DNA of 64,000 bases, from positions 1-64,000 of IMG/VR virus record IMGVR_UViG_3300035661_000043. One strand, written 5' to 3'. The translations under genes were made by a program, and so were the position numbers. Of the stretch, positions 10,677 to 57,609 are shown in pieces (the first letter of the stretch is position 1; each line of letters opens with the position of its first letter). This stretch comes from a virus. The notes below the pieces were generated by a model that worked only from the letters and a program-made list of their open reading frames with translations, was not told where the DNA came from and did no database searches.

Positions 10677-11389
10677 TAGATGTAGATTTCTTAGAGGTAG
10701 AAACAGATTCTGGATATCAACCAGTGTCATCTGTTAATACCACTGAGATCTATGAGATCTATGAGATCTATTTCGAATCTGGAAATATGATTCAATGTGC
10801 AGATAATCATATATTCATTGCAACAGATGGCGGTGAAATTTTTGCTAAAGATTAGATTGGAATGTGTCTTCTTACTAAGAATGGGACAGATAAAGTAATA
10901 AAAGTCATTGCAACTGGTGTATTTGAAGAAATGTATGATCTATCTGTAGATTAGGAAGATCATACGTATTATACAAATGGTATATTAAGTCATAATTCGA
11001 CCATTATGGCTGCAATTATGTGTCATTATATTATCTTCAATGATAGTAAGACATGTGCTATTCTTGCTAACAAAGCAGCTACTGCAAGGGAAATCTTATC
11101 TCGTGTTCAATTAGCTTATGAACACTTACCTAAATGGTTACAGCACGGAGTAATTGAGTGGAATAAAGGGTCTTTTTTACTTGAAAATGGATCTAGAGTT
11201 CTTGCTGCATCTACTTCATCCAGTGCAATTCGGGGATTTTCTTGTGTTTAGGGAGACACAAAAATAACACTAAGAAACAAAAAAACTGGTGAAATCAAAG
11301 AAATAGAAATCAATAAGCTACCATAGATGATGAATGAAAATGCAAATTCATCTAAGGAGCCAAATGATATTACAATTCGATTTCAATGA
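10631..11389 (+). CDS. 17: Terminase gp17, fragment 2: intein C-part, ATPase middle, second intein N-part
   Basis: Starts MQKLSDSV and carries about 122 intein residues ending in TNGILSHN. The next residue, Ser, restores the P-loop GK|ST of the ATPase. The extein continues through ASTSSSAIRGFS (T4 ASSSSAVRGNS). There a second intein begins, with TAG in its block A (CV-TAG-GDTKI, Ser), and stops at TGA after about 48 residues. A short in-frame tandem of 9 bp encodes EIYEIYEIY inside the first intein. It must be trans-spliced at both ends to give terminase. Confidence 0.85.
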
Positions 11390-15739: not shown

Positions 15740-17902
15740 ATGTCTAATCCAATATTCAATTTTTTCGGGTTCTAGATCAAACGATCTGAAGAGGAGAAAC
15801 AGCTTCCTAAATCAGTTGTTGCTCCAAATCTAGCAGATGGTTCTATTGTTATTAATCAGAACTTGGGAACTGGTATTCTCGGAGACTCTTATACTCTTGC
15901 ATTTGACCCAGACGGTCAGATCACAAATGAGATCGATCTCGTTCGTAGATATAGAGAATTGTGCAGATATCCAGAAGTAGCAGAAGCTATTGAAGATATC
16001 GTTAACGAAGCAGTGATTATCGAAGGTGAAGATAAACCTGTTGAAATCAATCTTGAGTATCTTAAGATCTCAGATTCAATCAAGAAAAAGATCACAGAAG
16101 AATTTGCCAAGATTCTTTCACTGATGAACTTCAATGAAGAAGGGTATGATCTATTTGAAAGATGGTATGTGGATGGGAAGATCTTTTTCCATATATTACT
16201 GGATGAAAATCATTCAAATGGTATCAAAGAGCTAAGATTAATTGACCCACGTAAGATCAAGAAGATCAAGAATGTGATCAAAGAGAAATTAGCAAGTGGT
16301 GTAGAGATTGTCAGGGAAGTACAAGAATATTACATATACAATGACAAGGGTATTGCAGGCGGCACTAGTCAGGGTGTAAGATTAAGTGTTGATTCTGTTG
16401 TGTACTGCCATTCAGGTCTGATTGATTCACAAACTGGATTAGTTCAATCATATTTGCATAAAGCAATCAAACCTGCTAACCAATTAAAAATGTTGGAAGA
16501 AGCGGTTATTATCTACAGATATACTCGTGCACCAGAGCGTAGGGTATTCTATATTGATGTTGGAAATTTACCAAAAGGTAAAGCTGAGCAATACGTCAGT
16601 GATATGATGAATAAGTTCAAGAACAAGTTATCATATGATGCTGTTACTGGGGAATTGGCAGATTCTAAGAGACACTTGTGTTTGGATATGAGCACACAAG
16701 TACCATTGCTTGATGGCAGAACACTGTCTATTTCCGAGATTGCTGCAGAGATGGATCAATCAGATAAACCTCTATGGGCATATTCATGTGATCCAGTGAC
16801 TGGCAAATTTGTGCCGGGTAAAATTACCTGGGCCGGTGTATCTAGACCAAATGCACAAGTCATGCGTATTACTCTTGATAATGGAAAAACCATTACTTGC
16901 ACCCCAGATCACAAATTTCCAGTTTGGGACAAGGGATTCGTAAAAGCTGAAGATCTATATATTGGCGAATCAATGATCCCGCATTATACTCGTTGGAAGG
17001 AAATTGCTAAGGGTTCTTCCAAGAATTACGAACAAATTTTCGAGAATGATACTGGAGAATGGAAATTCACACATCAAGCAGTATCCGATTGGAAAGATTG
17101 TATTACATCGCGCCGTTCATCTACATCATGTGTTTCTTCTGATAACAGTGCAGATAGACAAATTGATTCTCTAATGTTCCGTAACCATAAAATTGCAAAA
17201 ATTGAGTGGTTAGAAGAAACAATGGACACTGGATGTCTGACTATTGACGGAGATGAAGAATTCCACAATTATCATACATTCGCTCTATCTGCCGGAATTT
17301 ACACCCAGAACTAGATGATGGAAGATTTCTGGATGCCTAGGCGCGGAGATAAATCAACAGAAATCACGACACTTCCAGGGGGTCAGGGTCTCGGTCAGTT
17401 GGATGATTTGGATTATTTCAAGGATAAACTATATCGTTCTTTAAATGTACCTAAATCTAGATTCGTTCCAGATAGTGGTTTCTCTATTGGTAGATCAGAT
17501 ACTATTTCTAGGGATGAAGTAAAATTTGCTAAATTTGTTGGCAAATTGCGCAACAAATTCGGAAATATCTTTTTAGATATATTGCGCGTTCAATTGATTT
17601 CTAAGGGTATTTTCTCTAGTAAAGATTGGGAACAATTTAAAGAGAAGATTAAAGTCATTTACGCTAAAGATAACTTCTTTGCCGAATTAAAAGAAAATGA
17701 AGTTCTTACTACTAGACTTTAGACTGCATTGCAATTGGATCCATTTGTCGGCAAATATGTAAGCAAAGAATACATCCAAAGAAAAGTACTAAGATTCACA
17801 GATGATGAAATAAAAGAAATAAATACACAAATGGAAGCCGAGATCAAATCTGGTGATATTACTGACCCAGTAGCAATGATGCAAGAACCACCTCAGGCAT
17901 AA
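15740..17902 (+). CDS. 20: Portal protein gp20 with in-frame intein
   Basis: 720 codons, of which 211 are an intein. Extein landmarks of T4-like portals: FFGFSIKRSEEE (TAG as Ser), RRYRELCRYPEVAEAIEDIV, RWYVDGKIFFHI, ELRLIDPRKIKKIK, PERRVFYIDVGNLPKGKAEQ, then MMEDFWMPRR, TTLPGG and LNVPKSR. Removing the intein gives RHL-Ser-MMEDFW, matching the HMSM(L)EDFW of relatives; the Ser is TAG 17312-17314. The portal is the dodecameric vertex through which DNA is packaged. Confidence 0.92.
16679..17311 (+). other. Portal intein (contiguous, 211 aa)
   Basis: Begins with Cys (CLDMSTQVPLLDG, block A) after RHL. It has a block-B-like TCTPDHKFPVW and ends FHNYHTFALSAGIYTQN, with the terminal Asn preceded by Gln instead of the usual His. 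The +1 extein residue is the TAG codon. No LAGLIDADG or HNH nuclease motif is evident in the central part, so it is probably a mini-intein. Splicing requires Cys/Ser/Thr at +1, which holds if TAG is serine. Confidence 0.88.
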
Positions 17903-29431: not shown

Positions 29432-30028
29432 ATGGCGAAATACTACGACGCAACCCCCATCAAAATCAAACCACCCGTGGATCCAAAGAATCCAGAGCAC
29501 TACGTCAACAACCAAGACTTCAAAACTGCTCTGTTAGACTATGCGGAGCAAAGAGATGCCGCTCTTGCTGCAGGCGAAGAAAAACCCCAAGTGTAGAATT
29601 ACATCGCTTCATGTTTCCTGAAGATTGCTAAGGGTCTAGGCTCGAAGCACAACTTCCGGAATTACAGTTATTTGGATGATATGATTAGTGATGCAGTTTT
29701 TACATGTCTTAAGAATATCGACTGTTTTGATGCATCTAGAGGAACTAGTGCATTTGCATATTTCACACAATGTGTCTGGTTTTCCTTTCTTGGCTCTATC
29801 AAAGATGAAAAGAAGAAAGAACAGACTAAACGTGATTTGTTCTTCAGAGGGGATTTTGATACCTTTGATATGGGATCAGAAGATGAAGAATTTCAAATGT
29901 AGTATACTGAATACATGAAATCTCTCGGGACAGATTCAACTCCTTATGAATCAAAAGAACAAAATAAAAGAAAGAAATTTGAAGCAAAGAAATCAGGTCT
30001 TGACACACTGTTCGGGGATGAAGAATGA
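29432..30028 (+). CDS. 55: Late sigma factor gp55
   Basis: 198 residues with two TAG. KPQV-Ser-NYIASCFLKIAKGL, YLDDMISDAVFTCLKNI and SAFAYFTQCVWFSFL match T4/cyanophage gp55 (region 2-like helices); relatives have Ser at the first TAG site. AGGAG precedes the ATG. Gp55 directs RNA polymerase to TATAAATA promoters, which occur in front of gp18, gp19 and gp22 here. The TGA overlaps the gp47 ATG. Confidence 0.88.
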
Positions 30029-31079: not shown

Positions 31080-32786
31080 ATGATTATCTTCGAAAGTATA
31101 AGAATCAAGAACTTCCTCAGTTACGGCAATGCATGGACTGAATTAAATCTCAGACAGGGAAAAGTACTAGTTGCAGGTGCCAATGGGGCAGGAAAATCTA
31201 CTATGGTAACTGATGCTCTGTAGTATGCACTATTCGGTAAGCCATTTCGTAAGATCAATATCCCACAATTGATCAACTCTATCAACCAGAAGGATTGCCA
31301 GGTAGAACTAGATTTCTAGATTGGCAAGGATTCTTACCAAATTAAGAGAGGGATGAAACCGGGGAAGTTCGAAGTATACAAAAATTCAGAATTGATAAAA
31401 CAGGAAGCAGCAACAAAGGATTATCAATAGTATCTTGAGCAGCAAGTGCTGAAGATAAATCATAAGACGTTTGTACAGATTCTTGTTCTTGGTTCTGCTG
31501 TTTTTACTCCTTTTATGCAATTAGCAGCCGGTCATAGAAGAAATGTGATTGAAGATCTTCTAGATATCAATGTTTTCAGCACTATGCTTAGATTGCTTAA
31601 GGAAAAGATTCAAGTCAATAAAGAAGAAACTCTAATCATCAATGGTAAACTAGAATCAGCTAAGAAGGAATAGATTGCACAGAAAAGACTCATTGAAACA
31701 TTGAGTTCTAAGAGTGATGATCAATTGGTAATTCTGTATTCTGAACTCACATAGTTACAGAACGATATAGTATCGGCAAAATAGAAGAGAAATGATGTAC
31801 ACAAATTACTTGAATCTATCCAGATTCCTGACTTTATGTCAGAAGAATTAGAAGATATAAGAGTTGAATTCAATACACTGAAAAAGTAGATTCAATCAGA
31901 TATCAAGAAGATAGATTCAGTCTCCGCTATTCATTCATGCCCAACATGTTTACAGTCTGTAACTGATGATCACAAAGTAAGAATCAAGACTGAACTAAAA
32001 TATAAGTATGATCAACAGAAACCGAAGCTAGATCAGTATTCTAAAAAAGTTGAAGAACTGACTACACAGAAAGAATTGTTTGATACAGCAAAGATCGAAC
32101 AGCAGAAAATGTTGAAAGAACTTGCTGCGATAGACCAGAAAATAATTTCCCTTGAAGAACAAGAATCTTCCACACGAGTGAAGATCGAGACACAGAAACA
32201 AAGTTCTTCTGCAGACTTGGAAAAAGAAAAAGATCGACTCAGAGATTTAGCACAATCTGCTCTTATGTTGATTGAACGCAAGAACGAATTGATCACAGAG
32301 AAATAGATTCAAGAAGTCTCTCTAGGTCTTCTGAAGGACACAGGTATTAAGGCTAGTATCATCAAAGAATACCTGCCGATTCTCAATAAGATGATCAACA
32401 AGTATCTATCTGAGTTCGACTTTTTCATTAATTTTGTATTGGATGAAAATTTCAATGAACAGCTGTTGAGCAGAGGAAGAGATTCGGCTTAGTACTTCTC
32501 TCTATCAGAGGGTGAAAAGAAGCGAGTAGATGTTGCAATTCTTCTCGCATTCAGGCATATTGCTTCTCTAAAGAATTCTGCAAAGATCAATTTGCTTGTT
32601 CTTGATGAACTTGATTCTGGGTTGGATCACGACTCTCGTTTGAAGTTGCTAGAATTGATCCAGACTATGGATTCCGATGTCTGGATGGTCTCCCACTCTA
32701 TACAGAACACTGAACTTGAACAGCAGTTCGATAAGGTGACTTTTGTAATGAAGAAGGGAGATTTTTCAGAAATGATCATCAAGTGA
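31080..32786 (+). CDS. 46: Recombination ATPase gp46 (Rad50/SbcC-like)
   Basis: 568 residues with nine TAG, including DALSYALFGKPFRK and ELDFSIGK, sites where relatives commonly have small residues or Ser. ABC-ATPase landmarks: GANGAGKST (Walker A), the zinc-hook CPTC in the coiled coil, SLSEGEKKRVD (signature), LLVLDELDSGLD (Walker B) and VSHS. Partner of gp47. Confidence 0.93.
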
Positions 32787-33667: not shown

Positions 33668-34609
33668 ATGAGCAGTATTGAAAATTTTGTGTGGAGTGAA
33701 AAATATCGACCTTAGACTGTGGCAGAATGCATACTCCCACAGTCAATCAAAAATGTGATTGTAAGCATGATCAAGAATGAAGATGTGACACATATTCTTA
33801 TGTCTGGATCTGCTGGTTGTGGGAAAACAACATTAGCTAGAGCCATAGTAAATGACTATGGTGGTGAATATCTGTTCATTAATGCATCTTTGGAGAATGG
33901 TATCGACACTATCCGAACTAAGGTTATGCAGTATTCCAGTACTGTTTCTTTGGAAGGAAAACAGAAATTTCTCATCATGGATGAATTTGATGGAATTTCT
34001 CGACAGAGTCAAGAGGCTCTTCGTGGTATCATTGAAGAGTTTAAGAATGTAAGATTCTTCTTTACTTGCAATTTTAAAAATCGTATTATCGATGCTATCA
34101 TCTCTCGTACAGTTGAGATCAATTTTACTATCCCAAGTGATGAAAAATCAAAACTTCAGTCTCAGTTCTTCAAACGTATAGTTGAGATTCTGAAAAAAGA
34201 AAATGTAGAGTTTGACCCAAAAGCAGTTGCAGAACTCATCCAAAAAAGTTATCCAGACAATCGTAAGATTCTGAATGAACTACAACGATATGCGTCAGGT
34301 GGTAAAATTGATGCAGGTGTTTTGATAGATCAAAGTAAATCTCACTTCAAAGATCTACTCAAAACCCTGAAAGAAAAGAACTTTACGGAGATGCGCAAGT
34401 GGGTCGCAAAAAATACCGATATTGAACCACAATCACTATTTCGGGAGATTTATGATTCTGCTAATGAGCAATTGCTACCTTCTTGTATACCTCAAGTAGT
34501 AATTCTTGCTGCAGATTATGGGTTCAAGTCTACACATTCAGTTGATCAAGAAATTCTTATTGCTGCATTTCTCACTGAATTTATGGCAGGTGCTCAATGG
34601 AAGCAGTAA
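33668..34609 (+). CDS. 44: Clamp loader large subunit gp44
   Basis: 313 residues with one TAG. FVWSEKYRP-Ser-TVAECILP: T4 has KYRPSTIDECILP, so Ser fits exactly. AAA+ motifs: SGSAGCGKTT (Walker A), FLIMDEFDG (Walker B), FFTCN (sensor 1). It works with gp62 to load gp45. Confidence 0.93.
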
Positions 34610-42720: not shown

Positions 42721-42814
42721 TTTGTTGCTCATATAAGCCTTTAGTTGGTTGAGTAAAGTCATCGGGAACGCCAATTCCGCGGGTGACACCTATTCATAAT
42801 TGTGGAGTTTAGTA

Positions 42815-44257
42815 ATGCAAATTGAGTCAGTGATTATATCGAGTCTTTTGATTAGTGAGGACTACGCCAGAAAGGTAGTTCCTCACCTTGAAAAAGAATA
42901 TTTCGCAGAAAGAGTTGATGCTCTCATTTACGATGAAATCAATACTTTCTTCTTGAAATTCAATGTGCTTCCTACAAAGGATGTACTGCGTGTGCAAATT
43001 ACAGACAAGTCAGGTATTTCTAATTCTGATGCCGAAGACGCTCTTGCTAGGATACAAGGTCTTTCAACCGAGCCGAAAAATCTAGATTGGCTAATAGAAA
43101 AGACTGAAGCATTCTGCAGAGATCGTGCTCTGTACAATGCTATCATGAAATCTATCACCATCATCGACGGCAAAGATCAGAAACACTAGCGGGAAGCAAT
43201 CCCTAGTATTCTTCAAGAAGCATTGGGGATTTCTTTTAACACTGCGGTTGGTCACTAGTATCTTGATGATGCAGAAAAACGGTTTGATTTTTATACTCGT
43301 GTTGAATCTAAGATCGTCATGGATATTGAGATGTTCAATAAGATCACAAATGGCGGACTGAGCAGAAAAACTCTAAACATCTTATTAGCTCAATCTGGTG
43401 GTGGTAAATCATTGGTGATGTCGCACATGGCCGCAGGATGTTTACGAGATGGATTAAATGTACTCTATATCTCTATGGAGATGTCCGAAGAAAAGATCGC
43501 AGAACGTATCGATGCCAACTTACTTGATGTTGAAGTTGACAAGATCAAAGATATTGGTAAGGATATCTTCTGCACAAAAATTTCTAATCTTGCAGCTAAG
43601 ACTCACGGAAGATTGTTTATCAAGGAGTATCCATCCGGTGCAGCACACACAGGTCATTTCCGCGGTCTGTTAGAAGAACTGAAAACTAAGCAAGATTTTA
43701 CCCCTGACATTATCTTCATTGATTACCTTGGCATCTGTGCTTCATCTAGGGTGAAGATGGGAGGGTCAGTTAACTCTTATGCTTACCTGAAATAGATAGC
43801 AGAAGAACTTCGTGCATTTGCCACAGAGAATGATGTGCCTGTCGTGACTGCAGGTCAAGTGAATCGTGGTGGGTACAACACCACAGATTTAGACATGACT
43901 GACACATCAGAAAGTTTAGGTATTGCTATGACCGCAGATGTGATGCTAGGTATTGTTCGAACTGAAGAACTCGATGATATGAATCAGTTGATGATGGTAC
44001 AACTGAAAAATAGATATTAGGATCCCACTATCAATAAAAGATTTACTGTCGGTCTAAATCGCGCTAAGATGAAGTTATATGATCTGGAAGGGATGGCAAA
44101 TTCCGGTTTCACACCAGATGCAAAAAATAAAACATATGCACCAAAAATTGCATAGAACACCAGAGAAGACACACCGGTATCAGAAGATGTTATAGAATAG
44201 TTACCGGTTGCAGGTATTAAATCTAAAACAGTCAACACACAAGGATTCGCGTTTTGA
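42815..44257 (+). CDS. 41: Replicative helicase gp41 (DnaB-like)
   Basis: 480 residues with six TAG, e.g. YLKSIAEELRAFA and LKNRYSDPT, sites where relatives have A/S and N/S. RecA-fold motifs: LLAQSGGGKSLVMSHMAAG (Walker A), VLYISMEMSEEKIAERIDA, DIIFIDYLGI (Walker B), GQVNR. TGGAG precedes the ATG. A hexameric fork helicase; the stop overlaps a TTG start of the next gene. Confidence 0.92.
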
Positions 44258-49837: not shown

Positions 49838-49956
49838 CTTACTACTTTCATATTCCCATAATTTGTTAACTTAAAAGGAAGAACATCACGAAACGTGGTA
49901 AATGTAAGTGACACTCAGATGTCTGGGTTGTCACGTTAATTCAAAATATGTGTCAC

Positions 49957-50031: not shown

Positions 50032-50035
50032 ATAT

Positions 50036-50111
50036 GGGACTATAGTTTAATGGTTAAAACATCACCCCTTTAAGGTGTAAGCTCTCGGTTCGAATCCGAG
50101 TAGTCCTACCA
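50036..50111 (+). tRNA. tRNA-Lys(UUU)
   Basis: Acceptor GGGACTA/TAGTCCT, A73, CCA; anticodon stem CACC/GGTG with loop CCTTTAA (C33); canonical T-arm. Confidence 0.8.
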
Positions 50112-50240
50112 TTCATATAGTAAGACCATCGACGGGTGCCATACTGCAGATTACAGCAGTCAACATTCGGTGCTCCTGCCAGGGTGCGAAAAGCTGGGTT
50201 GGCAGACTCGGCAAATTATTGATGGTCTTACTATATGAAT
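50111..50240 (+). ncRNA. Structured RNA closed by a perfect 20-bp stem
   Basis: 50111-50130 pairs without mismatch with 50221-50240. Inside are ACTGC/GCAGT and CTGCCA/TGGCAG hairpins and a GCGAAAAGC-type loop. It lies between tRNAs but does not fold as one. Class unknown. Confidence 0.6.
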
Positions 50241-50247
50241 GAATTTT

Positions 50248-50285
50248 GCCCGGTTAGCTCAAATGTAGAGCAATCGACCAGATCC
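50248..50285 (+). pseudogene. Orphan 5' half of a tRNA
   Basis: GCCCGGTTAGCTC...GAGC has an acceptor strand and D-arm but no matching 3' half (expected ACCGGGC) that I can find. An A-rich stretch without features follows to 50400. Confidence 0.5.
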
Positions 50286-50401
50286 AAAGAATAATTATAA
50301 AGCATTGCAAGATAAAGAAAAGATAAAATCTGTAATCAAACAAAATGAAGTTAATTTGAAGATCGTATTGAATCATCAATTGACTTTATTACATATAAGA
50401 A

Positions 50402-50475
50402 GCCTCTGTAGTTAAATGGTATAACGGGCGCTTGATAAGCGCTTATTGTATGTTCAATTCATACCAGAGGTACCA
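50402..50475 (+). tRNA. tRNA-Ile(GAU)
   Basis: Acceptor GCCTCTG/CAGAGGT, A73, CCA; anticodon stem GGCGC/GCGCT, loop TTGATAA. Confidence 0.8.
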
Positions 50476-50483
50476 AGAATAAT

Positions 50484-50555
50484 GGGGTTACCGTATGGGA
50501 CGGACTCGGGGTTTGCAACCTTGATGATGCGGATCGTTACCGCATAACTCCACCA
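50484..50555 (+). tRNA. tRNA-Ala(UGC)
   Basis: Acceptor GGGGTTA/TAACTCC, A73, CCA; anticodon loop TTTGCAA; T-stem TGCGG/CCGCA with unusual loop ATCGTTA. The next about 105 bp (50556-50660) end in ATCCACCA and may hold a decayed tRNA that I cannot fold. Confidence 0.72.
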
Positions 50556-50667
50556 CAGGATAATAGAAATCCTAGGTATCTATAAGGGCTTGCCCTAGAT
50601 CATGAACACGGGATCCTTTCCACGAGGGTTTAGTGTAATGTCTCCGGCACAATCCACCAATTTTAAT

Positions 50668-50742
50668 GCTGAAGTAGTTTAACTGGAAAAATCGCCCTTT
50701 GGTATGGGGCAGTCATGGGGTCAGTTCCCATCTTCAGCTCCA
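50668..50742 (+). tRNA. tRNA-Thr(GGU)
   Basis: Acceptor GCTGAAG/CTTCAGC perfect, U73, CCA; anticodon stem GCCCT/GGGGC, loop TTGGTAT; atypical T-loop GTCAGTT. Confidence 0.7.
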
Positions 50743-50775
50743 ATCCGCCTCCACTTACTACTTTCATATTCCGTT

Positions 50776-50823
50776 CACTCCCGGATATGGTAAAGGTCTC
50801 TGGCTGTTAACCAGAAGGGAGTG
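50776..50823 (+). pseudogene. Armless tRNA-Asn(GUU)-like remnant
   Basis: CACTCCC pairs with GGGAGTG directly around a D-region and a perfect anticodon arm TCTGG-CTGTTAA-CCAGA; no T-arm lies inside. A full tRNA-Asn exists at 51284. Either decayed or rearranged. Confidence 0.4.
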
Positions 50824-50854
50824 TGGGTATCATTGTATCCTAGACAGTATTTTT

Positions 50855-50930
50855 AGCCTTAAGAGTGAATGAGATTCCTATCTCTATGACATAGAGATGA
50901 TGCGAGGTGCGACTCCTCGTTAGGCCACCA
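50855..50930 (+). tRNA. tRNA-Val(GAC), imperfect acceptor
   Basis: Anticodon stem TCTCT/AGAGA, loop ATGACAT; T-stem CGAGG/CCTCG; CCA encoded. The acceptor pairs only in part (AGCCTTA with TTAGGCC), so function is uncertain. Confidence 0.5.
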
Positions 50931-50936
50931 GTTTTC

Positions 50937-51007
50937 GGTTCTAAGATTTTACGTAAGCATACCACTTCTTAGAAGTGGAGGAGAGAGATCGTTACTCTCT
51001 AGAACCG
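50937..51007 (+). tRNA. tRNA-like gene with UUA (ochre) anticodon
   Basis: Acceptor GGTTCTA/TAGAACC perfect, G73; anticodon stem CCACT/AGTGG, loop TCTTAGA, giving anticodon UUA with C33; T-stem GAGAG/CTCTC with loop ATCGTTA. The D-arm is hard to pair and no CCA is encoded. Short variable loop (class I). If functional it would read UAA, and perhaps UAG by wobble; it may equally be decayed. Confidence 0.45.
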
Positions 51008-51067
51008 TCCGAAATTCTAGCTGCAGGAGTAATTTCCTGTCTAGACCCGGGAAGTCATGACCCCGGG

Positions 51068-51163
51068 ACCTCGTAGTGATGGAATGGTAGACATAGGCTC
51101 GTATAGTGATCCGGTGGAAATAAACGCCACATGCAGGTTTCGAAGTCCTGCCTACAATGAGGT
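51068..51163 (+). tRNA. tRNA-Leu-like class II element, bulged acceptor
   Basis: Leu-type D-arm (GATGGAATGGTAGACAT) and long variable arm, but the closing stem is nine pairs interrupted by a 3-nt AAT bulge before GAGGT. The anticodon loop reads GTATAGT with one mismatched stem pair. The element at 53722 has the same bulge. Confidence 0.42.
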
Positions 51164-51194
51164 TAAGTAAACATGATGTCATGAGTTTTAAGAT

Positions 51195-51269
51195 GCCTCC
51201 GAGGTGTTGGTGATTACATCTCTGACTTCCACTCAGATGTATCCGGTTTGACTCCGGACGGAGGCTCCA
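51195..51269 (+). tRNA. tRNA-Gly(UCC)
   Basis: Acceptor GCCTCCG/CGGAGGC, U73, CCA; anticodon stem TCTGA/TCAGA, loop CTTCCAC; T-arm TCCGG-TTTGACT-CCGGA. Confidence 0.8.
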
Positions 51270-51283
51270 GTTTTGATTAGTAA

Positions 51284-51359
51284 TGTGTGATAGCTCAGTT
51301 GGTAGAGCAGATGGTTGTTACCCATCAGGTCGAGGGTTCGAAGCCTTCTCACACAGCCA
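51284..51359 (+). tRNA. tRNA-Asn(GUU)
   Basis: Acceptor TGTGTGA/TCACACA, G73 (typical of Asn), CCA; anticodon stem GATGG/CCATC, loop TTGTTAC; canonical D- and T-arms. Confidence 0.85.
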
Positions 51360-51369
51360 AATTTTATAT

Positions 51370-52488
51370 GCCCTTATAGCTCAGTTGGAAGAGCAACAAA
51401 AAAAATATATTCTCTTAAAGCATAGATAGCGATGCAGGGGTCTTGTAAACCTCAGAGGAGCGCGCAAGTCGTTCTGGGAGAACCATCACAATAAAGTTTG
51501 TATATATTCCCAACTCAGTTGGTGCTTATTTAAGATATGAACTATGACATTATTTTCTTCCATAACTTTTGAAATTTTTTCTGTGTCTATGGATATTAGA
51601 TAATCGTTTTTAGGATCTAAATACACATCATATTCTACTAGGTAAAAATCTGCAAAGTATTTTTTAGTACCATATCTCAGATAAGATGGTCTAGTCCAAT
51701 TGATATTGTTAGAATCTAATTCGGTTGCGATTTTATATTCATAAGAAGATTCTAACCAGACTTTTCCAGCAAATCTAGATTCATACCAACCCCAGGCTTT
51801 ATTGTTTTTATTTCCACCAAGAGCCGGATTTGATTTTGCTGTTTCTGATAATCTTTTGAGATAACATTCCTTTGAACAAGTTTTTCTGTCTCCTGGGAAG
51901 CATTTATTGCAAACACAACACCAAGAAACATAAGTAAATTTTAATTTTTCTCTATTAGTTTTTGTTTCATTGTGTTTTGTTTTTATTTTTTGTAGTTTTG
52001 GTCCGATAAAAGCAGGTCTATTACATTTTTCTCTTTTTCTATTTGTATAAGAAGCAGCACATGAATGAGAACAATATTTGTTATTTCTTGCCTTCATTGA
52101 TTTAGGTTTTCCACATTCACATAGATTCGGATTTGAATTATATTCGGCTATGCGTGCGGCTGCTTTTGCCTTTTGTGTAATGTGATTCTATTTGCTAGCT
52201 TTGCCTGCTTTAATCTTCTAAAGTTTTCCAGCTTCAGTGTGCGCTGCGATAAAATGAGAAAAGATACCTTTGGAAGATTTGATTTCTCTACATTCTAAAC
52301 AGGAGACTAGAGGAGATAGATATTTGTCTTCGACTGTCATAGTTGTTACCTTAATAAATAAAAATGATATGGGACAGCTTGGTTGTTACCTTACTGGGTT
52401 GAATGATACGCCAATATCATTCTAACCATATCTATGTATACAAATTAGTTCTTGAGGGTCCGGGATTCGAATTCTCGTGAGGGCACCA
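51370..52488 (+). pseudogene. tRNA-Thr(UGU) broken into three pieces
   Basis: 5' piece GCCCTTA + D-arm (51370-51394), anticodon arm GGGGT-CTTGTAA-ACCTC (51437-51453), and T-arm plus acceptor TGAGGGC-ACCA (about 52455-52488). Joined, they form a perfect tRNA-Thr; the acceptor halves pair 7/7 over 1.1 kb. About 42 nt separate pieces 1 and 2; about 1 kb with an antisense endonuclease separates 2 and 3. I see no group I core, so it may be disrupted rather than spliced. Confidence 0.6.
51486..52340 (-). CDS. Zinc-finger homing endonuclease inside tRNA-Thr
   Basis: 284 residues with two TAG near the N-terminus (Ser). Paired Cys motifs CECGKPK...YCSHSC and CCVCNKC...TCSKEC are zinc fingers of the kind seen in phage homing endonucleases. 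The C-terminal half, WLESSYEYKIATELDSNNI, then KKYFADFYLVEYDVYLDPKN, resembles a PD-(D/E)xK/Vsr-like nuclease core. It lies antisense between the halves of a tRNA-Thr gene. Confidence 0.7.
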
Positions 52489-52495
52489 AGTTTTG

Positions 52496-52612
52496 ATTAG
52501 TAATGTCTTTAGCGAGAGAGTCTAGTAGACACAGATTGTTCTTCGGTGTTATACGAGATGATCTTGTCACTCAATAGTAGGAGAACATGAGGAGTGGCCT
52601 ACTAATCAGATT
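52496..52612. other. Stem-bounded region of unknown type
   Basis: TGATTAGTA at 52496-52504 pairs with TACTAATCA at 52599-52607. Internal hairpins (GTCT/AGAC) occur, but no tRNA fold. Confidence 0.35.
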
Positions 52613-52620
52613 TATTTTAT

Positions 52621-52696
52621 TGCGGCGTGGAGAAGTAGTATCTCATCAGTCTCATAAGCTGAAGGTCGTCTGTGCGATTCAGACCGTTCGCAACCA
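52621..52696 (+). tRNA. tRNA-Met(CAU), initiator-like
   Basis: D-arm TGGAGAAGTAGTATCTCA and variable loop AGGTCG resemble bacterial tRNA-fMet; anticodon stem TCAGT/GCTGA, loop CTCATAA; T-arm GTCTG-TGCGATT-CAGAC; ACCA end. The acceptor has a bulged T, and the three G-C pairs of classical initiators are missing. Confidence 0.62.
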
Positions 52697-52966
52697 CTTT
52701 ATTTTGTATTACTTCGAATGCTGTTTCTGGAGTGTAAGATCTATCTTCAAAGATGAGAACTTCCAAACCAACTGCTTCGAATTCATTTATTTCAATTCTA
52801 TCTCGGTTTTGTACTTGCAACAGAGAGTGTTGTTAATCGACTCAATGAGGCTTTACTCTGCCCGAAGAATATCAGTGAGTTTATCTCAGTGCTACACGTC
52901 TTTCAACAGTGAAAATCTTTTCAATCTTTTCAATCATTCCTTAGCTCAGGAACAATTAATTTTAAT

Positions 52967-53041
52967 GCTGCGTAGTCCGAAAAGTGAGGGCGCGACTTGA
53001 TAAGGCGCTGGCAGATGGGGCAGTACCATCACGCAGCACCC
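52967..53041 (+). tRNA. tRNA-Ile(GAU)-like, second
   Basis: Acceptor GCTGCGT/ACGCAGC perfect; anticodon stem GCGAC/GGCGC with one mismatch, loop TTGATAA; T-stem GATGG/CCATC with unusual loop GGCAGTA. The 52697-52966 stretch before it has no gene that I trust. Confidence 0.5.
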
Positions 53042-53112
53042 ATTTTCAATAGGAAGTATGAGGATCATTACCTCGTAATAGGTGTAACTATACTTTGTAT
53101 TTCCACCGTAGA

Positions 53113-53205
53113 CTTGGTGTCCCGGAACTGCGCGCGCCGGAAGACGGTTCGATTCCGTCGTTAAAAGGTTTATGTTAGGTTCGATTCCTAACCGGTGGCC
53201 TACTT
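53113..53205 (+). other. Fused or class II tRNA-like element with two T-arms
   Basis: Closing CCACCG/CGGTGG, and two perfect T-arms (GACGG-TTCGATT-CCGTC and TTAGG-TTCGATT-CCTAA). No clear anticodon arm. It looks like two tRNA 3' parts joined. Confidence 0.4.
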
Positions 53206-53224
53206 ATTATGTGCGATATCTCTA

Positions 53225-53672
53225 TCGCACATCAGAATGACTGTATGGATCTTCGGATCTGTGAAGTTGAAAGAAATGTGTTCAGGAAGCGAGTTCGAGT
53301 CTCGCCAGCTCCACCAGAAGTATATCATCTGATGCATTCTGTGTGCTGTATATATTGCAAGTATTCAGTATACTTCTGATGGGGCTGTATTGGTTTCGAC
53401 TGGGCAATGAGTATGGAGATGGACAGTTTGGCAACGCAGAAGCCATTATGATTGGGTCTTCCCGGTTGAAGAAGCAAACAAAAGTAAAAGCAAACGCTGA
53501 TACATTCCTGATGGCGGCTTGATCGCCCAGTGAGGATTCCTTGGGTGTTCCTTATTACCAAAACACCCATCCTAATATACGGAGAGTGGACCTGCAGGGT
53601 GCAGGCGCTGTTTGCTAAACAGTTGGTGTCAGGAATGGCATTCCGGTCGGGACGGACTCTCTCCTCCAAAAT
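53225..53672 (+). ncRNA. ssrA: Circularly permuted tmRNA
   Basis: The acceptor piece comes first: T-arm GCGAG-TTCGAGT-CTCGC, then CAGCTCC-A-CCA ending at 53316. After a 64-nt spacer with its own 9-bp stem, the coding piece begins at 53381 with GGGGCTG, which pairs with CAGCTCC, followed by TATTGGTTTCGAC. The tag frame starts at GCA 53490 and reads ANADTFLMAA, stop TGA. This is the two-piece layout of alpha-, some beta-proteobacteria and cyanobacteria. Outer limits are approximate. Confidence 0.85.
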
Positions 53673-53721
53673 TCTTTCTAAGAGCTGATCCCTCTTAGTT
53701 AGACAGGAGTTATAACTCCTG

Positions 53722-53825
53722 GGCCCGTAGTGATGGAATGGTAGACATAAGCCCACGTGGGCTGGTGGGATAAACCCCGGGGTTTAAACCCCACGTACAG
53801 GTTCGAGTCCTGTCTACAATGGGCC
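53722..53825 (+). tRNA. tRNA-Leu-like class II element, bulged acceptor
   Basis: D-arm identical to 51068; T-arm ACAGG-TTCGAGT-CCTGT; closing GGCCCGTAG/CTAC-AAT-GGGCC with the AAT bulge. The anticodon region is a perfect hairpin AGCCCA-CG-TGGGCT, so no normal anticodon is presented. Preceded by a palindromic hairpin CAGGAGTT/ATAACTCCTG. Confidence 0.38.
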
Positions 53826-53835
53826 AAATAATTAT

Positions 53836-53910
53836 AGATTCTAGGGTGTGATAGCAGCACGATTCCCTCATAAGGAATAGGACTCCGAGCGTAACGGATA
53901 GAATCTACCA
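53836..53910 (+). tRNA. tRNA(CAU), Met or Ile2
   Basis: Acceptor AGATTCT/AGAATCT perfect, A73, CCA; anticodon stem ATTCC/GGAAT, loop CTCATAA; T-loop AGCGTAA. Confidence 0.7.
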
Positions 53911-53929
53911 AATGACAGACTTCTTTGGT

Positions 53930-54004
53930 GTGATGTTAGCTTAACAGTAAAGTCCGAGAATGTGACTCTCGTGGATATGGATGCGACTTCCATACATCAC
54001 CCCA
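53930..54004 (+). tRNA. tRNA-His(GUG) in an extended stem
   Basis: Acceptor GTGATGT/ACATCAC, C73 and CCA (C73 typical of His); anticodon stem CGAGA/TCTCG, loop ATGTGAC; T-arm ATGGA-TGCGACT-TCCAT. About nine further pairs (CTTCTTTGG/CCAAAGAAG) close leader and trailer. Confidence 0.78.
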
Positions 54005-54153
54005 AAGAAGTTTTAATGCTCCGGCTCCTCTGTCAATTTTTCAATGATGAAAGTTCATCATGACTACTACCAAAGAAACCCAAGACAACGCATCATTTGT
54101 ACAGATGGCAATGATGTGAAAAGTAAATGGAAAGCTTTTATTCATTCCTGTGA

Positions 54154-54159
54154 TATAAT
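54154..54159 (+). promoter_or_regulatory. Early promoter
   Basis: GCTTTTATTCATTCCTGTGA-TATAAT. Confidence 0.75.
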
Positions 54160-54178
54160 ACATTCATGGAAACGAACG

Positions 54179-54295
54179 ATGACTGGAAACGCGAATTCTT
54201 CTACTATCGTCAATTTCGAGTTTGGGTTGGTGAAAGATAGTGAAGGCAACCAAATTGGTGATACTGAATACTTTCCAACAAAACTCTCACAGTGA
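54179..54295 (+). CDS. Small hypothetical protein (38 aa)
   Basis: MTGNANSSTIVNFEFGLVKD, then SEGNQIGDTEYFPTKLSQ, TGA. An overlapping frame from ATG 54166 (METNDDWKREFFYYRQF...) is an alternative product because that ATG lies seven bases from the -10. I prefer the former for its composition. Confidence 0.5.
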   Translation: MTGNANSSTIVNFEFGLVKDSEGNQIGDTEYFPTKLSQ

Positions 54296-54301
54296 CCTGG
54301 A

Positions 54302-54332
54302 AAGAGGAAGTTGTTAACTATACTTCCTCTTC
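54302..54332 (+). terminator. Hairpin after the 54179 gene
   Basis: AAGAGGAAG-TTGTTAACTATA-CTTCCTCTT; no strong T-run. Confidence 0.55.
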
Positions 54333-54401
54333 ATAGTAAGCAGAAGGTGGATCTATGTACAGTAGCACGCACTTGACATTCTTATTTTTAATGAGTAAAT
54401 C

Positions 54402-54619
54402 ATGATCATCAAAGCTAATGTTTCTGTGTGTGATATCACAGATAGGAACTACGGTAAGTATATCGAAGGTGCTGCAGCTATTGCCGTGGTGCAACCGGTC
54501 GCTGGTGTGCTGTACTCTGGTTTGGTCCTGAGTATATTGCAGAGAATGATTTGAAGATCACCTCTCGTGAAGAAGCAGTTAAGAAGATTGAAGCACTGGG
54601 AGATCAGGTAGATTCTTAA
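54402..54619 (+). pseudogene. Small gene with an internal frameshift
   Basis: Frame 1 from ATG gives MIIKANVSVCDITDRNYGKY...; from about 54483 the sensible protein continues in another frame as RGATGRWCAVLWFGPEYIAE then REEAVKKIEALGDQVDS, TAA. Either an inactivating frameshift, a sequence error, or programmed shifting. No family recognised. Confidence 0.5.
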
Positions 54620-54632
54620 AGAAAGATAAATT

Positions 54633-54896
54633 GCAAATTTAGCTCAATGGTTAGAGCAGCGGACTCATGAAAAATTGTGCACCTAGGTAGGGATGCTTAG
54701 TGTGAATGTTGTCAAATTCGAAGAAACCTAAGTCAGAAATGATATGGTAACCTCGAGCCAAGCCTGAGAAATTAGGTGCTGTGTAGAGACTAGACGGCAA
54801 CCATCTAGAACAGATGAAGGTATAGTCCAGGGAGTGGCGAAAGTCACACAAACCAGAATCCGTTGGTTACAGGTTCGAGTCCTGTAATTTGCACCA
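54633..54896 (+). tRNA. tRNA-Ile2(CAU) interrupted by a group I intron
   Basis: Exons 54633-54668 and 54857-54896. Spliced, the tRNA is flawless: acceptor GCAAATT/AATTTGC, anticodon stem GCGGA/TCCGT, loop CTCATAA, T-arm ACAGG-TTCGAGT-CCTGT, ACCA. The 5' exon ends in U and the intron ends in G, as group I splicing demands. The insertion site (CAU|AA) equals that of the Azoarcus tRNA-Ile(CAU) intron, so Ile2 (lysidine-modified) is more likely than Met. Confidence 0.9.
54669..54856 (+). ncRNA. Group I intron, IC3, Azoarcus-like (188 nt)
   Basis: Core elements in order: GTCAAATTCGAAGAAACC (P3/J3-4/P4), TAACCTCGAGCCAAGCCTGA (P6-P5'), GTGTAGAGACTAGACGGC (P8/P3'/P7), GATGAAGGTATAGTCC (P7'), then GGGAGTGGCGAAAGTCAC (P9 with GAAA loop) and ACAAACCAG. 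I recall nearly the same strings in the Azoarcus ribozyme. No endonuclease inside. Confidence 0.9.
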
Positions 54897-54940
54897 AGAA
54901 TTAATGCGAGGTTGGTATAGATAGATGGTAACCTCTTAAA

Positions 54941-55015
54941 CGCACCGTGGCTGAAATGTTAGGCAGTGGATTGCAAATCCACTTTATGAGATCTCAGAAT
55001 TCTCCGGTGTGTCCA
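54941..55015 (+). tRNA. tRNA-Cys(GCA)
   Basis: Acceptor CGCACCG/CGGTGTG, U73 (typical of Cys), CCA; anticodon stem GTGGA/TCCAC perfect, loop TTGCAAA. Confidence 0.75.
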
Positions 55016-55134
55016 TATTTTTCAGTAAGTGACTAAGAAATAATCTATCTCTGATGTTCGTATAATGAGCTGTTTCTCTTAGTTAGAAGATAAGAGAATA
55101 TTGAACAACCCATTGTATTTGTTCTTAAAAATTC

Positions 55135-55209
55135 GGGTCTGTGGTGAAACGGAAATCATAAGAATCTTCTAAATTCCTGTTCCAAGTTCGATTCTTGGCA
55201 GACCCACCA
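55135..55209 (+). tRNA. tRNA-Arg(UCU)
   Basis: Acceptor GGGTCTG/CAGACCC perfect, A73, CCA; anticodon loop CTTCTAA; T-arm CCAAG-TTCGATT-CTTGG. Confidence 0.82.
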
Positions 55210-55218
55210 TTTAATATT

Positions 55219-55258
55219 GGAAGTAGCTCAATTGGTAGATCACAGACTCGAGTATGAA
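55219..55258 (+). pseudogene. Orphan 5' half of a tRNA
   Basis: GGAAGTAGCTCAATTGGTAG has an acceptor strand and D-arm, but no 3' half follows before tRNA-Trp. A possible decayed tRNA fragment also lies at 55395-55470 (TTCGAATC T-arm). Confidence 0.45.
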
Positions 55259-55307
55259 GATGAGACGGATCGCCGTAGTAAATGGGCTATCCAATTGACC
55301 GTTTAAT

Positions 55308-55382
55308 ATACCCTTAAGATAATGGCAGTCGTCAGGTCTCCAAAACCTTGAAGTCGCGGTTCGAGTCCGTGGGGTTATGCCA
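55308..55382 (+). tRNA. tRNA-Trp(CCA)
   Basis: Acceptor ATACCCT/GGGTTAT (one mismatch), G73, CCA; anticodon stem AGGT/ACCT, loop CTCCAAA; T-arm CGCGG-TTCGAGT-CCGTG. Confidence 0.78.
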
Positions 55383-55622
55383 TAATATAATACAACTATA
55401 GTTTAGTTTGGAGATGTAACTTACATCTCGTCTCCGGATAGCTGCTCCATGTTCGAATCTCTCTAGGTGTTCCGATATTCGGTGATTGATCCCAGTCATC
55501 GCTGGGCATACACTGGAAATGTATCGGTCTGTATGAAACTGGATTCGTGTCGGTAACGACTATCTCCTCCATCTTAAAGCCCCGATGCTGAAAGATATTT
55601 GAACTTTTATTCAGTCCGGTGA

Positions 55623-55628
55623 TATAAT
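55623..55628 (+). promoter_or_regulatory. Early promoter
   Basis: CTTTTATTCAGTCCGGTGA-TATAAT, 39 bases before the HD gene. Confidence 0.75.
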
Positions 55629-55666
55629 TCATCCACACCACAACAAAACACTGAAAGAGGTAGTAT

Positions 55667-56122
55667 ATGAAGAATGGTGAATTATTGTCAAAGGCTATCA
55701 TTATTGCGACAAACGCACATGCTGGACAATTTGATAGGGGTGGTACTCCATATATCCTGCACCCACTGCGAGTGATGTCATACTTGGAGGATGCAGACGA
55801 GGAACTCCAGTGTATTGCAGTTTTACACGATGTAGTAGAGGACACCTCTGTTACTTGGAAAGATCTTATCGAAGCAGGTATGACTCAACGAATCATCAGT
55901 GCTCTAAGATTGCTGACAAAGCTTTCCGGTCAGACACCGGATGAATACAAAGCAGGAGTTCTTTCTTCTGTGGATGCGATGAAGGTGAAAATGTGCGACT
56001 TGCGTCACAATTCTGATGTCCGCAGGTTGAAAGGCGTCTCTGAAAAAGACATAGCAAGAACTGCAAAGTATCACATGTTCTATATGGAAATCAAATCTGT
56101 TTTAGAACAAAGCAGAATTTGA
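55667..56122 (+). CDS. HD-domain alarmone hydrolase (SpoT/MESH1-like)
   Basis: 151 residues. HAGQFDRGGTPYILHPLRV, LHDVVEDT (the HD pair) and KMCDLRHNSD are the signature blocks of the ppGpp hydrolase domain of SpoT/MESH1 proteins; no synthetase domain is present. Probably hydrolyses (p)ppGpp to keep the infected host out of the stringent response. GAGGTAG upstream; early promoter. Confidence 0.8.
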   Translation: MKNGELLSKAIIIATNAHAGQFDRGGTPYILHPLRVMSYLEDADEELQCIAVLHDVVEDTSVTWKDLIEAGMTQRIISALRLLTKLSGQTPDEYKAGVLSSVDAMKVKMCDLRHNSDVRRLKGVSEKDIARTAKYHMFYMEIKSVLEQSRI

Positions 56123-56242
56123 CATGAAGGAAAATTGAACATTACTCTCACTTTAGCTGAACTCTAGTTTAGTGTAGTCGAGTCTTCTGTTTGTGATGTA
56201 GAATATTCACCGGATCTGATCCGTGCTACTGCCCAAGATAAT

Positions 56243-56319
56243 CCGCCGTTAGCGCAATTGGTAGGAGGCAACTGGCTTAAGACCAGTACAGTGTGGGTTC
56301 GAATCCTCACGGCGGACCA
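56243..56319 (+). tRNA. tRNA-Leu(UAA)-like, short variable loop
   Basis: CCGCCG/CGGCGG acceptor, A73, CCA; anticodon stem ACTGG/CCAGT, loop CTTAAGA (TAA). The variable loop has only about five bases, unlike canonical leucine tRNAs, so identity is uncertain. Confidence 0.65.
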
Positions 56320-56339
56320 TGTATTATGAAAGAGTGAAA

Positions 56340-56699
56340 ATGAAAGACATCCTAGGTCGCGAAGTTCATGTTGGTAATTATATTGCCTATGCTCAGGTTG
56401 CCGGTAGATCTGCTAATATGGCAATTTACAATGTCATCGCCATTGTCGGTGATTACCATGGTACTATCAAGGCGACGAAACTAGTAGAGAGCTATGGAGA
56501 TTATGCTCCATCTCGAATGTGTACTCTCACATCTGGAAAGGTAATTCCATGGCGATATGCGACACACACGAAAGATGTATGGAAACTTATTGAAATGACT
56601 CCAGAAGAAAAAGATGCAGTAGATAACAAGACATTCACTCTGAAGATCGGAGAGAGAATCATTATCCTCGATAATTTTACTCCAGATGTAGTAAAATAA
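56340..56699 (+). CDS. Hypothetical protein
   Basis: 119 residues: MKDILGREVHVGNYIAYAQV, then a beta-rich stretch (YHGTIKATKLVESYG) and FTLKIGERIIILDNF. It may be a small SH3-like barrel. An upstream in-frame ATG overlaps the tRNA CCA end, so I use the internal ATG. Unknown function. Confidence 0.6.
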   Translation: MKDILGREVHVGNYIAYAQVAGRSANMAIYNVIAIVGDYHGTIKATKLVESYGDYAPSRMCTLTSGKVIPWRYATHTKDVWKLIEMTPEEKDAVDNKTFTLKIGERIIILDNFTPDVVK

Positions 56700-56784
56700 T
56701 ACACAGACCGAGAAGTCTTGGTACTAGTCATCGGTGATGCATCATCATACTTATATCCGATTGAAATGTTCTTAATTCAGTAAT

Positions 56785-57459
56785 ATGTCTCGACATCTTA
56801 TGTTACAATGTCTTTTCAGCACACCTCTTTGGTCTTCTAATAAAATGGAAGACTTTCAAGAGAAGAAAAAAGCGATTATTCCATATCTATTGGATGATAA
56901 TAACTACATTCTTTCTGGGAAAAAGAATGGACTTTTGATCACAGATGCAAATTTACACAAGAATGCTGAATTCCGTGATATCTATAATTTCATGCGGATG
57001 AATGTATACAAAGCAATGCAAGAACTAGGTTTTCAGCCTAGATTCACTGTGACAAGTATGTGGGCAACAAAACAAGAATCATTTGCATATCATCACTTGC
57101 ACACTCACCGGAATTCTTTTCTCGGATCGGTGATGTATATTCACACAGACTCACCTACTAGTGGTACTACATTTGTTAATCCAACTGCTAGCATGTGGCA
57201 GTTGGAACCTGCATATCACGGTGGGTCTATGCCTCTTATTGCGAATTCATTTACTACAGACTTTGAAGAAGGTTCTGCTCATGTGTTTCCTGGGTGGCTG
57301 CAACACTATACAGAACCTAGTAAGTCTTCGTGTAGGATTGTCATTGCGATGAACATAATGCCTGTAGGTGGCACGAATAGAGATCACTACGATCGATATG
57401 AGTTCCCATCGGATATGAATTTGTTAGAAATAGAAAAAAATGTATTTCATCCCAGCTAA
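56785..57459 (+). CDS. 2-oxoglutarate/Fe(II) oxygenase-like protein
   Basis: 224 residues. YHHLHTHRNSFLGSVMYIHT, SGTTFVNPTASMWQLEPAYH, SAHVFPGWLQHYTEPSKSSC and RIVIAMNI form the double-stranded beta-helix of a 2OG oxygenase family frequent in T4-like cyanophages, with the distal HxxxPGxLxH ligand region visible. Substrate unknown; protein or DNA hydroxylation possible. Confidence 0.75.
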   Translation: MSRHLMLQCLFSTPLWSSNKMEDFQEKKKAIIPYLLDDNNYILSGKKNGLLITDANLHKNAEFRDIYNFMRMNVYKAMQELGFQPRFTVTSMWATKQESFAYHHLHTHRNSFLGSVMYIHTDSPTSGTTFVNPTASMWQLEPAYHGGSMPLIANSFTTDFEEGSAHVFPGWLQHYTEPSKSSCRIVIAMNIMPVGGTNRDHYDRYEFPSDMNLLEIEKNVFHPS

Positions 57460-57466
57460 AGTATGT

Positions 57467-57472
57467 TATAAT
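57467..57472 (+). promoter_or_regulatory. Early promoter of the amber suppressor tRNA
   Basis: AAAGTATGT-TATAAT, 48-53 bases before the tRNA-Ser(CUA) gene. Confidence 0.72.
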
Positions 57473-57519
57473 TACTCAACAACAAAAGAGAAACACTCTT
57501 TCTAACTTAATAGTTTAAT

Positions 57520-57609
57520 GGAAGTTTGGCAGAGTGGTTTATTGCCGCGGACTCTAAATCCGCTGAATCAGAGATGGTTCCACGAGTTCGAATCTCGTAA
57601 CTTCCTCCA
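57520..57609 (+). tRNA. Amber-decoding tRNA-Ser(CUA)
   Basis: Class II tRNA, 90 nt. Acceptor GGAAGTT/AACTTCC perfect, U73, CCA. Ser-type D-arm (TTGGCAGAGTGGTTTATTGC); anticodon stem GCGGA/TCCGC, loop CTCTAAA with anticodon CTA at 57554-57556; variable arm GAATC-AGAGAT-GGTTC; T-arm ACGAG-TTCGAAT-CTCGT. E. coli tRNA-Ser(UGA) has the same GGAAGT start and D-arm style. This tRNA explains the serine reading of TAG in the window. Confidence 0.92.

What the first reader, a model, noticed from the sequence alone, without database searches (positions are those of the whole stretch)
57520..57609. TAG is reassigned to serine, with the tRNA supplied by the phage
No accepted gene ends in TAG and dozens contain it. 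At the most conserved sites Ser is the expected residue: sheath KPSR-TAG-IN (T4 KPARSIN), gp44 KYRP-TAG-T (T4 KYRPST), the gp55 V-TAG-NYI site, portal RHL-TAG-MMEDFW, and intein CV-TAG-GDTKI. The class II tRNA with CUA anticodon has seryl-type D and variable arms. Most described phage amber reassignments are to glutamine, so an Amber-to-Ser code, if confirmed, is unusual.
Basis: partly seen in the sequence, partly recalled or inferred. Interest (0 to 1): 0.93.

Follow-up and report, generated by a model that had tools for sequence, protein, structure and literature searches.

The report
Phage reads amber stop as serine
This T4-like virus of bacteria uses the stop codon TAG as an ordinary codon for serine throughout its genes and carries its own transfer RNA to do so, a rare variant of the better-known phage trick of reading TAG as glutamine.

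Summary
The window (64 kb of a 79,755-bp IMG/VR record from a T4-like myovirus) has 93 in-frame TAG codons in the genes examined. All 27 homology-supported genes end in TAA or TGA, none in TAG. A complete class II tRNA with anticodon CUA lies at 57520-57609.

Four tests point to Ser. (1) Against a sister phage (84% DNA identity, also recoded), TAG stands opposite Ser codons 32 times, mostly codons two or three mutations away, versus Gln 12, Ala 6, others once at most; Ser beats Gln by 79 log units. (2) Over 82 profile columns Ser scores best and Gln poorly; the method recovers sense codons 99.96% of the time. (3) One TAG is the +1 residue of a portal intein, where Ser/Thr/Cys is needed; the intein-less sister and 78 of 78 related portals have Ser. 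(4) The tRNA resembles phage tRNA-Ser, including the odd U73.

The Gln pairs match other C/T transition rates, so mutation explains them; low-level Gln insertion is not excluded. Amber-to-Ser in phages was reported in 2014 (Ivanova et al., per PMC4695839), so this is a new, well-supported member of a known rare kind. I also found it in an Anaerovibrio prophage.

The parts
57520..57609 (+). class II tRNA, anticodon CUA, seryl type (GGAAGUU acceptor, Ser-type D arm, U44, 6-bp variable stem, C48, U73, encoded CCA)
   Evidence: ARAGORN; Rfam tRNA 54.1 bits; fold; relationship to phage tRNA-Ser
14815..14817 (+). in-frame TAG, gp18 sheath codon 639 (KPSR-TAG-IN); profile column S 0.78; sister codon TCC
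17312..17314 (+). in-frame TAG at the +1 extein residue after the gp20 portal intein (QN / TAG-MMEDFW); Ser (TCA) in the intein-less sister and Ser in 78 of 78 portal loci
   Evidence: column S 0.77
16679..17311 (+). intein in portal gp20 (codons 314-524), absent from the sister phage
29594..29596 (+). in-frame TAG, gp55 late sigma codon 66 (V-TAG-NYI); sister also TAG
31221..31223 (+). in-frame TAG, gp46 codon 48; column C/S/T
32490..32492 (+). in-frame TAG, gp46 codon 471; column S 0.51; sister TCT
33713..33715 (+). in-frame TAG, gp44 codon 16 (KYRP-TAG-T); sister TCT; wider column not Ser
43187..43189 (+). in-frame TAG, gp41 codon 130; column S 0.44; sister TAG
44018..44020 (+). in-frame TAG, gp41 codon 407; column N 0.94 but sister TCC (Ser)
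11249..11251 (+). in-frame TAG inside a terminase intein N-terminal piece (CV-TAG-GDTKI); sister GCC (Ala)
31080..32786 (+). gp46 (SbcC-like), 9 in-frame TAG: example of an early/replication gene that needs the code
42800..44257 (+). gp41 DnaB-like helicase, 6 in-frame TAG

Best explanation
The phage (and its sister) uses TAG as an additional serine codon in all classes of genes. It encodes a tRNA-Ser derivative whose anticodon is CUA. Host seryl-tRNA synthetase is known to recognise the variable arm and acceptor rather than the anticodon (established knowledge), so a phage tRNA-Ser whose anticodon is changed to CUA should stay charged with serine. The charged tRNA competes with host RF1 at UAG and inserts Ser; phage genes stop at TAA and TGA. 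Shown here: the recoding, the Ser assignment by comparison, and the tRNA's seryl anatomy and phage tRNA-Ser kinship. Inferred: serylation by the host enzyme, competition with RF1, and early expression of the tRNA (needed because replication genes carry about as many TAGs as late genes).
For: Sister comparison: of 56 sites pairing TAG with a sense codon, Ser 32 (TCT 16, TCA 6, TCG 6, TCC 2, AGC 1, AGT 1), Gln 12, Ala 6, others once at most. Log-likelihood with exchange rates learned from sense codons: Ser 0, Ala -59.7, Gln -79.5, Thr -89.5. A protein-level realignment gave the same picture: Ser 35, Gln 13, Ala 6. Profile columns (82): S +21.0, T +3.5, N +1.4, A -26.1, Q -32.6, with 99.96% recovery of sense codons; mixture estimate S 0.44, N 0.26, T 0.23, Q about 0, against S 0.40, T 0.45 for true TCG codons. 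Intein +1 site in gp20. tRNA: all 79 bacterial tRNAs that share its D-arm/anticodon-stem pattern and carry a normal anticodon were Ser. Best masked match is a T4-like phage tRNA-Ser (79%); best Leu 63%, best Gln 63%. Phage locus L149 carries a tRNA-Ser(UGA) with nearly the same variable arm and the same U73.
Against: Gln is over-represented among TAG partners (12 of 56) relative to ordinary Ser-Gln exchange; a 75:25 Ser:Gln mixture fits 30 log units better than pure Ser if codon distance is ignored. In the window's own 39 profile columns Asn scores above Ser (13.6 v 7.1), driven by a few Asn columns; where the sister can be read at those sites it has TCC (Ser), TAG, GCA (Ala) or, in a weak 52% alignment, AGG. 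Bootstrap over all 82 columns gives Ser in 83%. U73 differs from the G73 of all 48 bacterial tRNA-Ser with encoded CCA. No promoter was found for the tRNA, and no protein evidence exists.
Confidence: 0.93

Rival explanations
1. TAG means glutamine, as in genetic code 15 of crAss-like and Lak phages.
For: Gln is the second commonest partner (12 of 56; CAG 10, CAA 2). Gln is the commonest identity of phage amber tRNAs (69% of 180; PMC10879173).
Against: 79.5 log units worse than Ser in the sister test; -32.6 v +21.0 in profile columns and about 0 in the mixture. All Gln partners are CAG/CAA, one or two steps from TAG, at a rate (2.6% of Gln sites) like His-Tyr 4.3% and Pro-Ser 3.2%. tRNA-Gln is class I; this tRNA is class II.
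Confidence: 0.01
2. TAG is decoded ambiguously: mostly Ser by the phage tRNA, with a minor Gln share from host tRNA-Gln(CUG) near-cognate reading or an unseen second suppressor.
For: The Gln excess fits a 75:25 mixture if mutation distance is ignored.
Against: Rates of other first-position C/T changes explain the excess; profile mixture gives Gln about 0; no second CUA tRNA in the standard ARAGORN scan of the record or the Rfam scan of the tRNA region.
Confidence: 0.05
3. The class II tRNA is a Tyr or Leu suppressor (supF or supP type).
For: Bacterial tRNA-Tyr and tRNA-Leu also have long variable arms; one phage tRNA-Tyr scores near the Ser set.
Against: No Tyr partner and one Leu partner among 56; Leu and Tyr tRNAs here all have A73 (11/11, 3/3) while U73 occurs in phage tRNA-Ser; variable-arm layout matches Ser, not Tyr.
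Confidence: 0.01
4. TAGs are assembly errors, pseudogenes or leaky stops rather than a code.
For: Many genes carry only one or two TAGs.
Against: 25 TAG sites are shared with an 84%-identical sister from another metagenome; contigs from further metagenomes align at 99.7%; 93 TAGs, none terminal in 27 homology-supported genes.
Confidence: 0.005

Closest known systems
Phage amber-to-Ser recoding with Ser-tRNA(CUA), Ivanova et al. 2014 Science, as summarised in PMC4695839
   Same: UAG read as Ser in phages with a phage-encoded Ser-tRNA(CUA).
   Different: The original paper was not available here, so overlap of lineages is unknown. PMC4695839 says those phages also carry RF2; none is on this record. 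This one is a T4-like myovirus with TAG in early as well as late genes.
Genetic code 15 phages (TAG=Gln; crAss-like, Lak, phAss-1)
   Same: TAG sense codon in many genes, phage-encoded CUA tRNA, TAA/TGA termination.
   Different: The amino acid is Ser, not Gln, and the tRNA is class II seryl type.
tRNA-Ser(UGA) of T4-like phages (for example locus L149)
   Same: Near-identical variable arm, same D-loop core, similar T arm and the same U73-CCA.
   Different: Anticodon CUA instead of UGA; different anticodon stem.
Anaerovibrio slackiae prophage (L214/L259, NZ_VUNR01000005.1)
   Same: Seryl-type CUA tRNA with the same 18-base D-arm stretch; TAG columns are Ser 12, Gln 0 of 24 comparisons with relatives.
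   Different: Temperate phage with TAG concentrated in the lytic block downstream of the tRNA; G73.

Membership tests
Phage stop-codon reassignment with suppressor tRNA | TAG in frame in many conserved genes | tested here: met
Phage stop-codon reassignment with suppressor tRNA | Genes end at the other two stops | tested here: met
   17 TAA, 10 TGA, 0 TAG in 27 genes
Phage stop-codon reassignment with suppressor tRNA | Cognate CUA tRNA encoded by the phage | tested here: met
Phage stop-codon reassignment with suppressor tRNA | Host uses the standard code with RF1 | not testable with these tools
   host unknown
Genetic code 15 (TAG=Gln) | TAG aligns with Gln | tested here: not met
Amber-to-Ser code | TAG aligns with Ser | tested here: met
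Amber-to-Ser code | Ser found at TAG in protein | not testable with these tools
   needs mass spectrometry
tRNA-Ser | Class II with Ser-type variable arm and D arm | tested here: met
tRNA-Ser | G73 discriminator (usual, not strictly defining) | tested here: inconclusive
   This tRNA has U73; T73 also occurs in 3 sense tRNA-Ser genes of T4-like phages, so G73 is not required in phage tRNA-Ser
tRNA-Ser | Charged by SerRS | not testable with these tools
   needs an aminoacylation assay
tRNA-Pyl (ARAGORN's label) | Very short variable region | tested here: not met
   6-bp variable stem
Lytic-gene-restricted recoding | TAG confined to late genes | tested here: not met
   6.3 per 1000 codons in structural, 5.0 in replication genes; the Anaerovibrio prophage shows the late-gene pattern

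The most novel reading that the evidence does not exclude
Amber-to-Ser is a recurrent phage code reached independently by T4-like lytic phages and by temperate phages through conversion of tRNA-Ser genes, used genome-wide in one and as a lytic-gene switch in the other.
Probability: 0.6. Interest if true: 0.68.

Novelty: new member of a known kind. Interest (0 to 1): 0.6.

Why it matters
Annotation pipelines translate TAG-recoded phages with TAG=Gln by default. Here that would put a wrong residue at every TAG, including an intein nucleophile. A Ser assignment that can be read from sister codons, an intein chemistry site and the related sense tRNA makes this a clean case for testing how phages change codon meaning, and it shows the phage amber code is not only Gln. 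The Anaerovibrio prophage, from a named strain, offers a system that could be grown.

Tried and rejected
Rejected: tRNA-Pyl label (variable arm too long); Gln, Tyr, Leu and Asn assignments (see rivals). Asn led in the window-only columns, but the sister shows only one Asn at a TAG site. A second suppressor: ARAGORN's 'tRNA-Stop(tta)' at 50036-50111 has a mismatched anticodon stem in the called register; shifting by one gives 4 stem pairs with anticodon UUU and C33, so it is probably not an ochre tRNA. Promoter/terminator scan around the tRNA gave nothing above chance. No release factor or SerRS on the record. Antisense shadow ORFs were removed from the column analysis. A pattern search of one bacterial order (189 genomes) found no further seryl-type CUA tRNA beyond Anaerovibrio slackiae.

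Full report
WHAT IS THERE. The window is positions 1-64000 of a 79,755-bp IMG/VR virus record. Gene content is that of a T4-like myovirus: gp14, gp15, terminase, gp18-gp23, UvsW, gp55, gp47, gp46, gp45, gp44, gp43, UvsX, gp41 and a topoisomerase II subunit. Read with TAG as an unknown residue, these proteins match their families across TAG codons. 93 in-frame TAGs occur in the 43 genes examined. Of 27 homology-supported genes none ends in TAG (17 TAA, 10 TGA). A tRNA with anticodon CUA lies at 57520-57609 and folds as a complete cloverleaf with a 6-bp variable stem and an encoded CCA.

WHICH AMINO ACID: SISTER PHAGE. Contigs from metagenome 3300048672 (G005, L002, L003, L128) form a sister at about 84% DNA identity that is also recoded. 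That they belong to one phage is inferred from shared origin and similar divergence. At 25 aligned sites both have TAG. At 56 sites one has TAG and the other a sense codon: Ser 32, Gln 12, Ala 6, and six others once each. Of the 32 Ser partners only 6 are TCG, the one Ser codon a single mutation from TAG; TCT (16), TCA, TCC and AGY need two or three. With exchange rates learned from about 10,000 codon pairs, Ser leads Ala by 60, Gln by 80 and Thr by 90 log units. A protein-level realignment agrees (Ser 35, Gln 13, Ala 6, with a few pairs from shadow frames).

THE GLN EXCESS. Twelve Gln partners exceed ordinary Ser-Gln exchange. All are CAG or CAA. CAG to TAG is one C-to-T transition, and in a TAG=Ser code it is merely a missense change. 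Gln-TAG pairs occur at 2.6% of Gln sites, no more than His-Tyr (4.3%) and Pro-Ser (3.2%), which also arise by first-position C/T change. Wider columns show no Gln component. A minor Gln share by misreading is not excluded.

WHICH AMINO ACID: PROFILE COLUMNS. Profiles were built from IMG/VR relatives (loci and five named phages), with window and sister left out. 82 TAG columns gave S +21.0, T +3.5, N +1.4, A -26.1, Q -32.6; the same procedure recovered the right amino acid in 99.96% of draws of sense codons. Bootstrap support for Ser was 83%, because TAG sits mostly in variable columns. A mixture estimate gave S 0.44, N 0.26, T 0.23, Q about 0; true TCG codons, matched for conservation, gave S 0.40, T 0.45. 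The Asn signal comes from a few columns (for example gp41 codon 407, where the sister has TCC, Ser).

AN INTEIN SITE. The portal gene carries an intein (16679-17311) absent from the sister. The codon right after it is TAG at 17312. This +1 position must be Ser, Thr or Cys for ordinary intein splicing (established intein chemistry). The sister reads RHL-S(TCA)-MMEDFW, and 78 of 78 portal matches in related loci have Ser there. Gln at this site should block splicing.

THE tRNA. A pattern of its D arm and anticodon stem, searched in GTDB genomes, returned 112 places, of which 80 were held. Of the tRNAs recognised there, 79 had Ser anticodons (73 UGA, 6 CGA), one CUA and one unclear. With the anticodon masked its best match is a T4-like phage tRNA-Ser at 79%; the Ser median score is 92.5, against a best of 73.5 for Leu and 61.5 for Gln; one phage tRNA-Tyr reaches 91.5. 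U73 looked odd because all 48 bacterial tRNA-Ser scored have G73, but the tRNA-Ser(UGA) and (GCU) of phage locus L149 also have U73, and the former has almost the same variable arm. The amber tRNA therefore most likely descends from a phage tRNA-Ser(UGA) (inference).

HOW IT LIKELY WORKS. SerRS does not read the anticodon (established knowledge), so an anticodon change leaves serine identity intact. The phage tRNA then competes with host RF1. TAG is about as frequent in replication genes (5.0 per 1000 codons) as in structural genes (6.3), so the tRNA must be active early. This differs from the model of a late switch. No phage RF2 or SerRS was found on the record, but it is probably incomplete.

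RELATED CASES. Only two other IMG/VR contigs matched the strict seryl CUA pattern. One is a prophage of Anaerovibrio slackiae (L214, same as L259). Its genes upstream of the tRNA are almost free of TAG, while the lytic block downstream (terminase, a 3392-residue protein, tail fibre J) carries many. Against relatives its TAG sites pair with Ser 12 times and Gln never in 24 comparisons; these reuse about ten independent sites. The other is L213/G007, with in-frame TAG in terminase and portal, where the amino acid was not tested.

KNOWN OR NEW. PMC4695839, citing Ivanova et al. 2014, states that phages reassign UAG to Ser and Gln with Gln-tRNA(CUA) or Ser-tRNA(CUA). The later papers read here speak of Gln; an isotype survey of 180 phage amber tRNAs lists Gln, Trp, Ile and Tyr but not Ser (PMC10879173). 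So the kind is known but rare, and this is a new member with unusually direct evidence. I could not read the 2014 paper itself.

Noticed in passing
53224-53613: Phage-encoded permuted (two-piece type) tmRNA: Rfam RF04321 94.7 bits against a cut-off of 47; ARAGORN tag ANADTFLMAA.
   Followed up: no
10078-12844: Terminase large subunit is spread over three ORFs whose ends look like halves of two split inteins (CVQGSTLI.../...ILSHN-STIMAA and CVxGDTKI.../...DISHN-CNFLAL), suggesting trans-splicing.
   Followed up: partly
37664-40997: DNA polymerase gp43 is split; the middle ORF ends in an intein-like N part after DTDS and the last ORF begins with ...GVLVHN-SCYINV, another likely split intein.
   Followed up: partly
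54657-54896: Group I intron (RF00028, 66.4 bits) that seems to sit inside a tRNA gene, with a tRNA 3' half just downstream.
   Followed up: no
50036-50111: tRNA called ochre (UUA) by ARAGORN; the anticodon stem is mismatched and a one-base shift gives UUU with C33. Rfam scores it highly as a tRNA (67.3 bits).
   Followed up: partly
49533-57609: Long tRNA array with many low-scoring or degenerate tRNAs besides 13 good ones.
   Followed up: partly
L214 (G008), tRNA near 30.8 kb of the 77-kb contig: Anaerovibrio slackiae prophage with seryl-type CUA tRNA and TAG codons in the lytic genes, Ser by alignment.
   Followed up: partly
L213 (G007), 3799-3886 of L213: Unrelated 17-kb phage contig with seryl-type CUA tRNA and in-frame TAG in terminase and portal; amino acid not tested.
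   Followed up: partly
21796-24926, minus strand: Two homing-endonuclease-like genes (phrog_3339/559) next to gp23, on the opposite strand.
   Followed up: no
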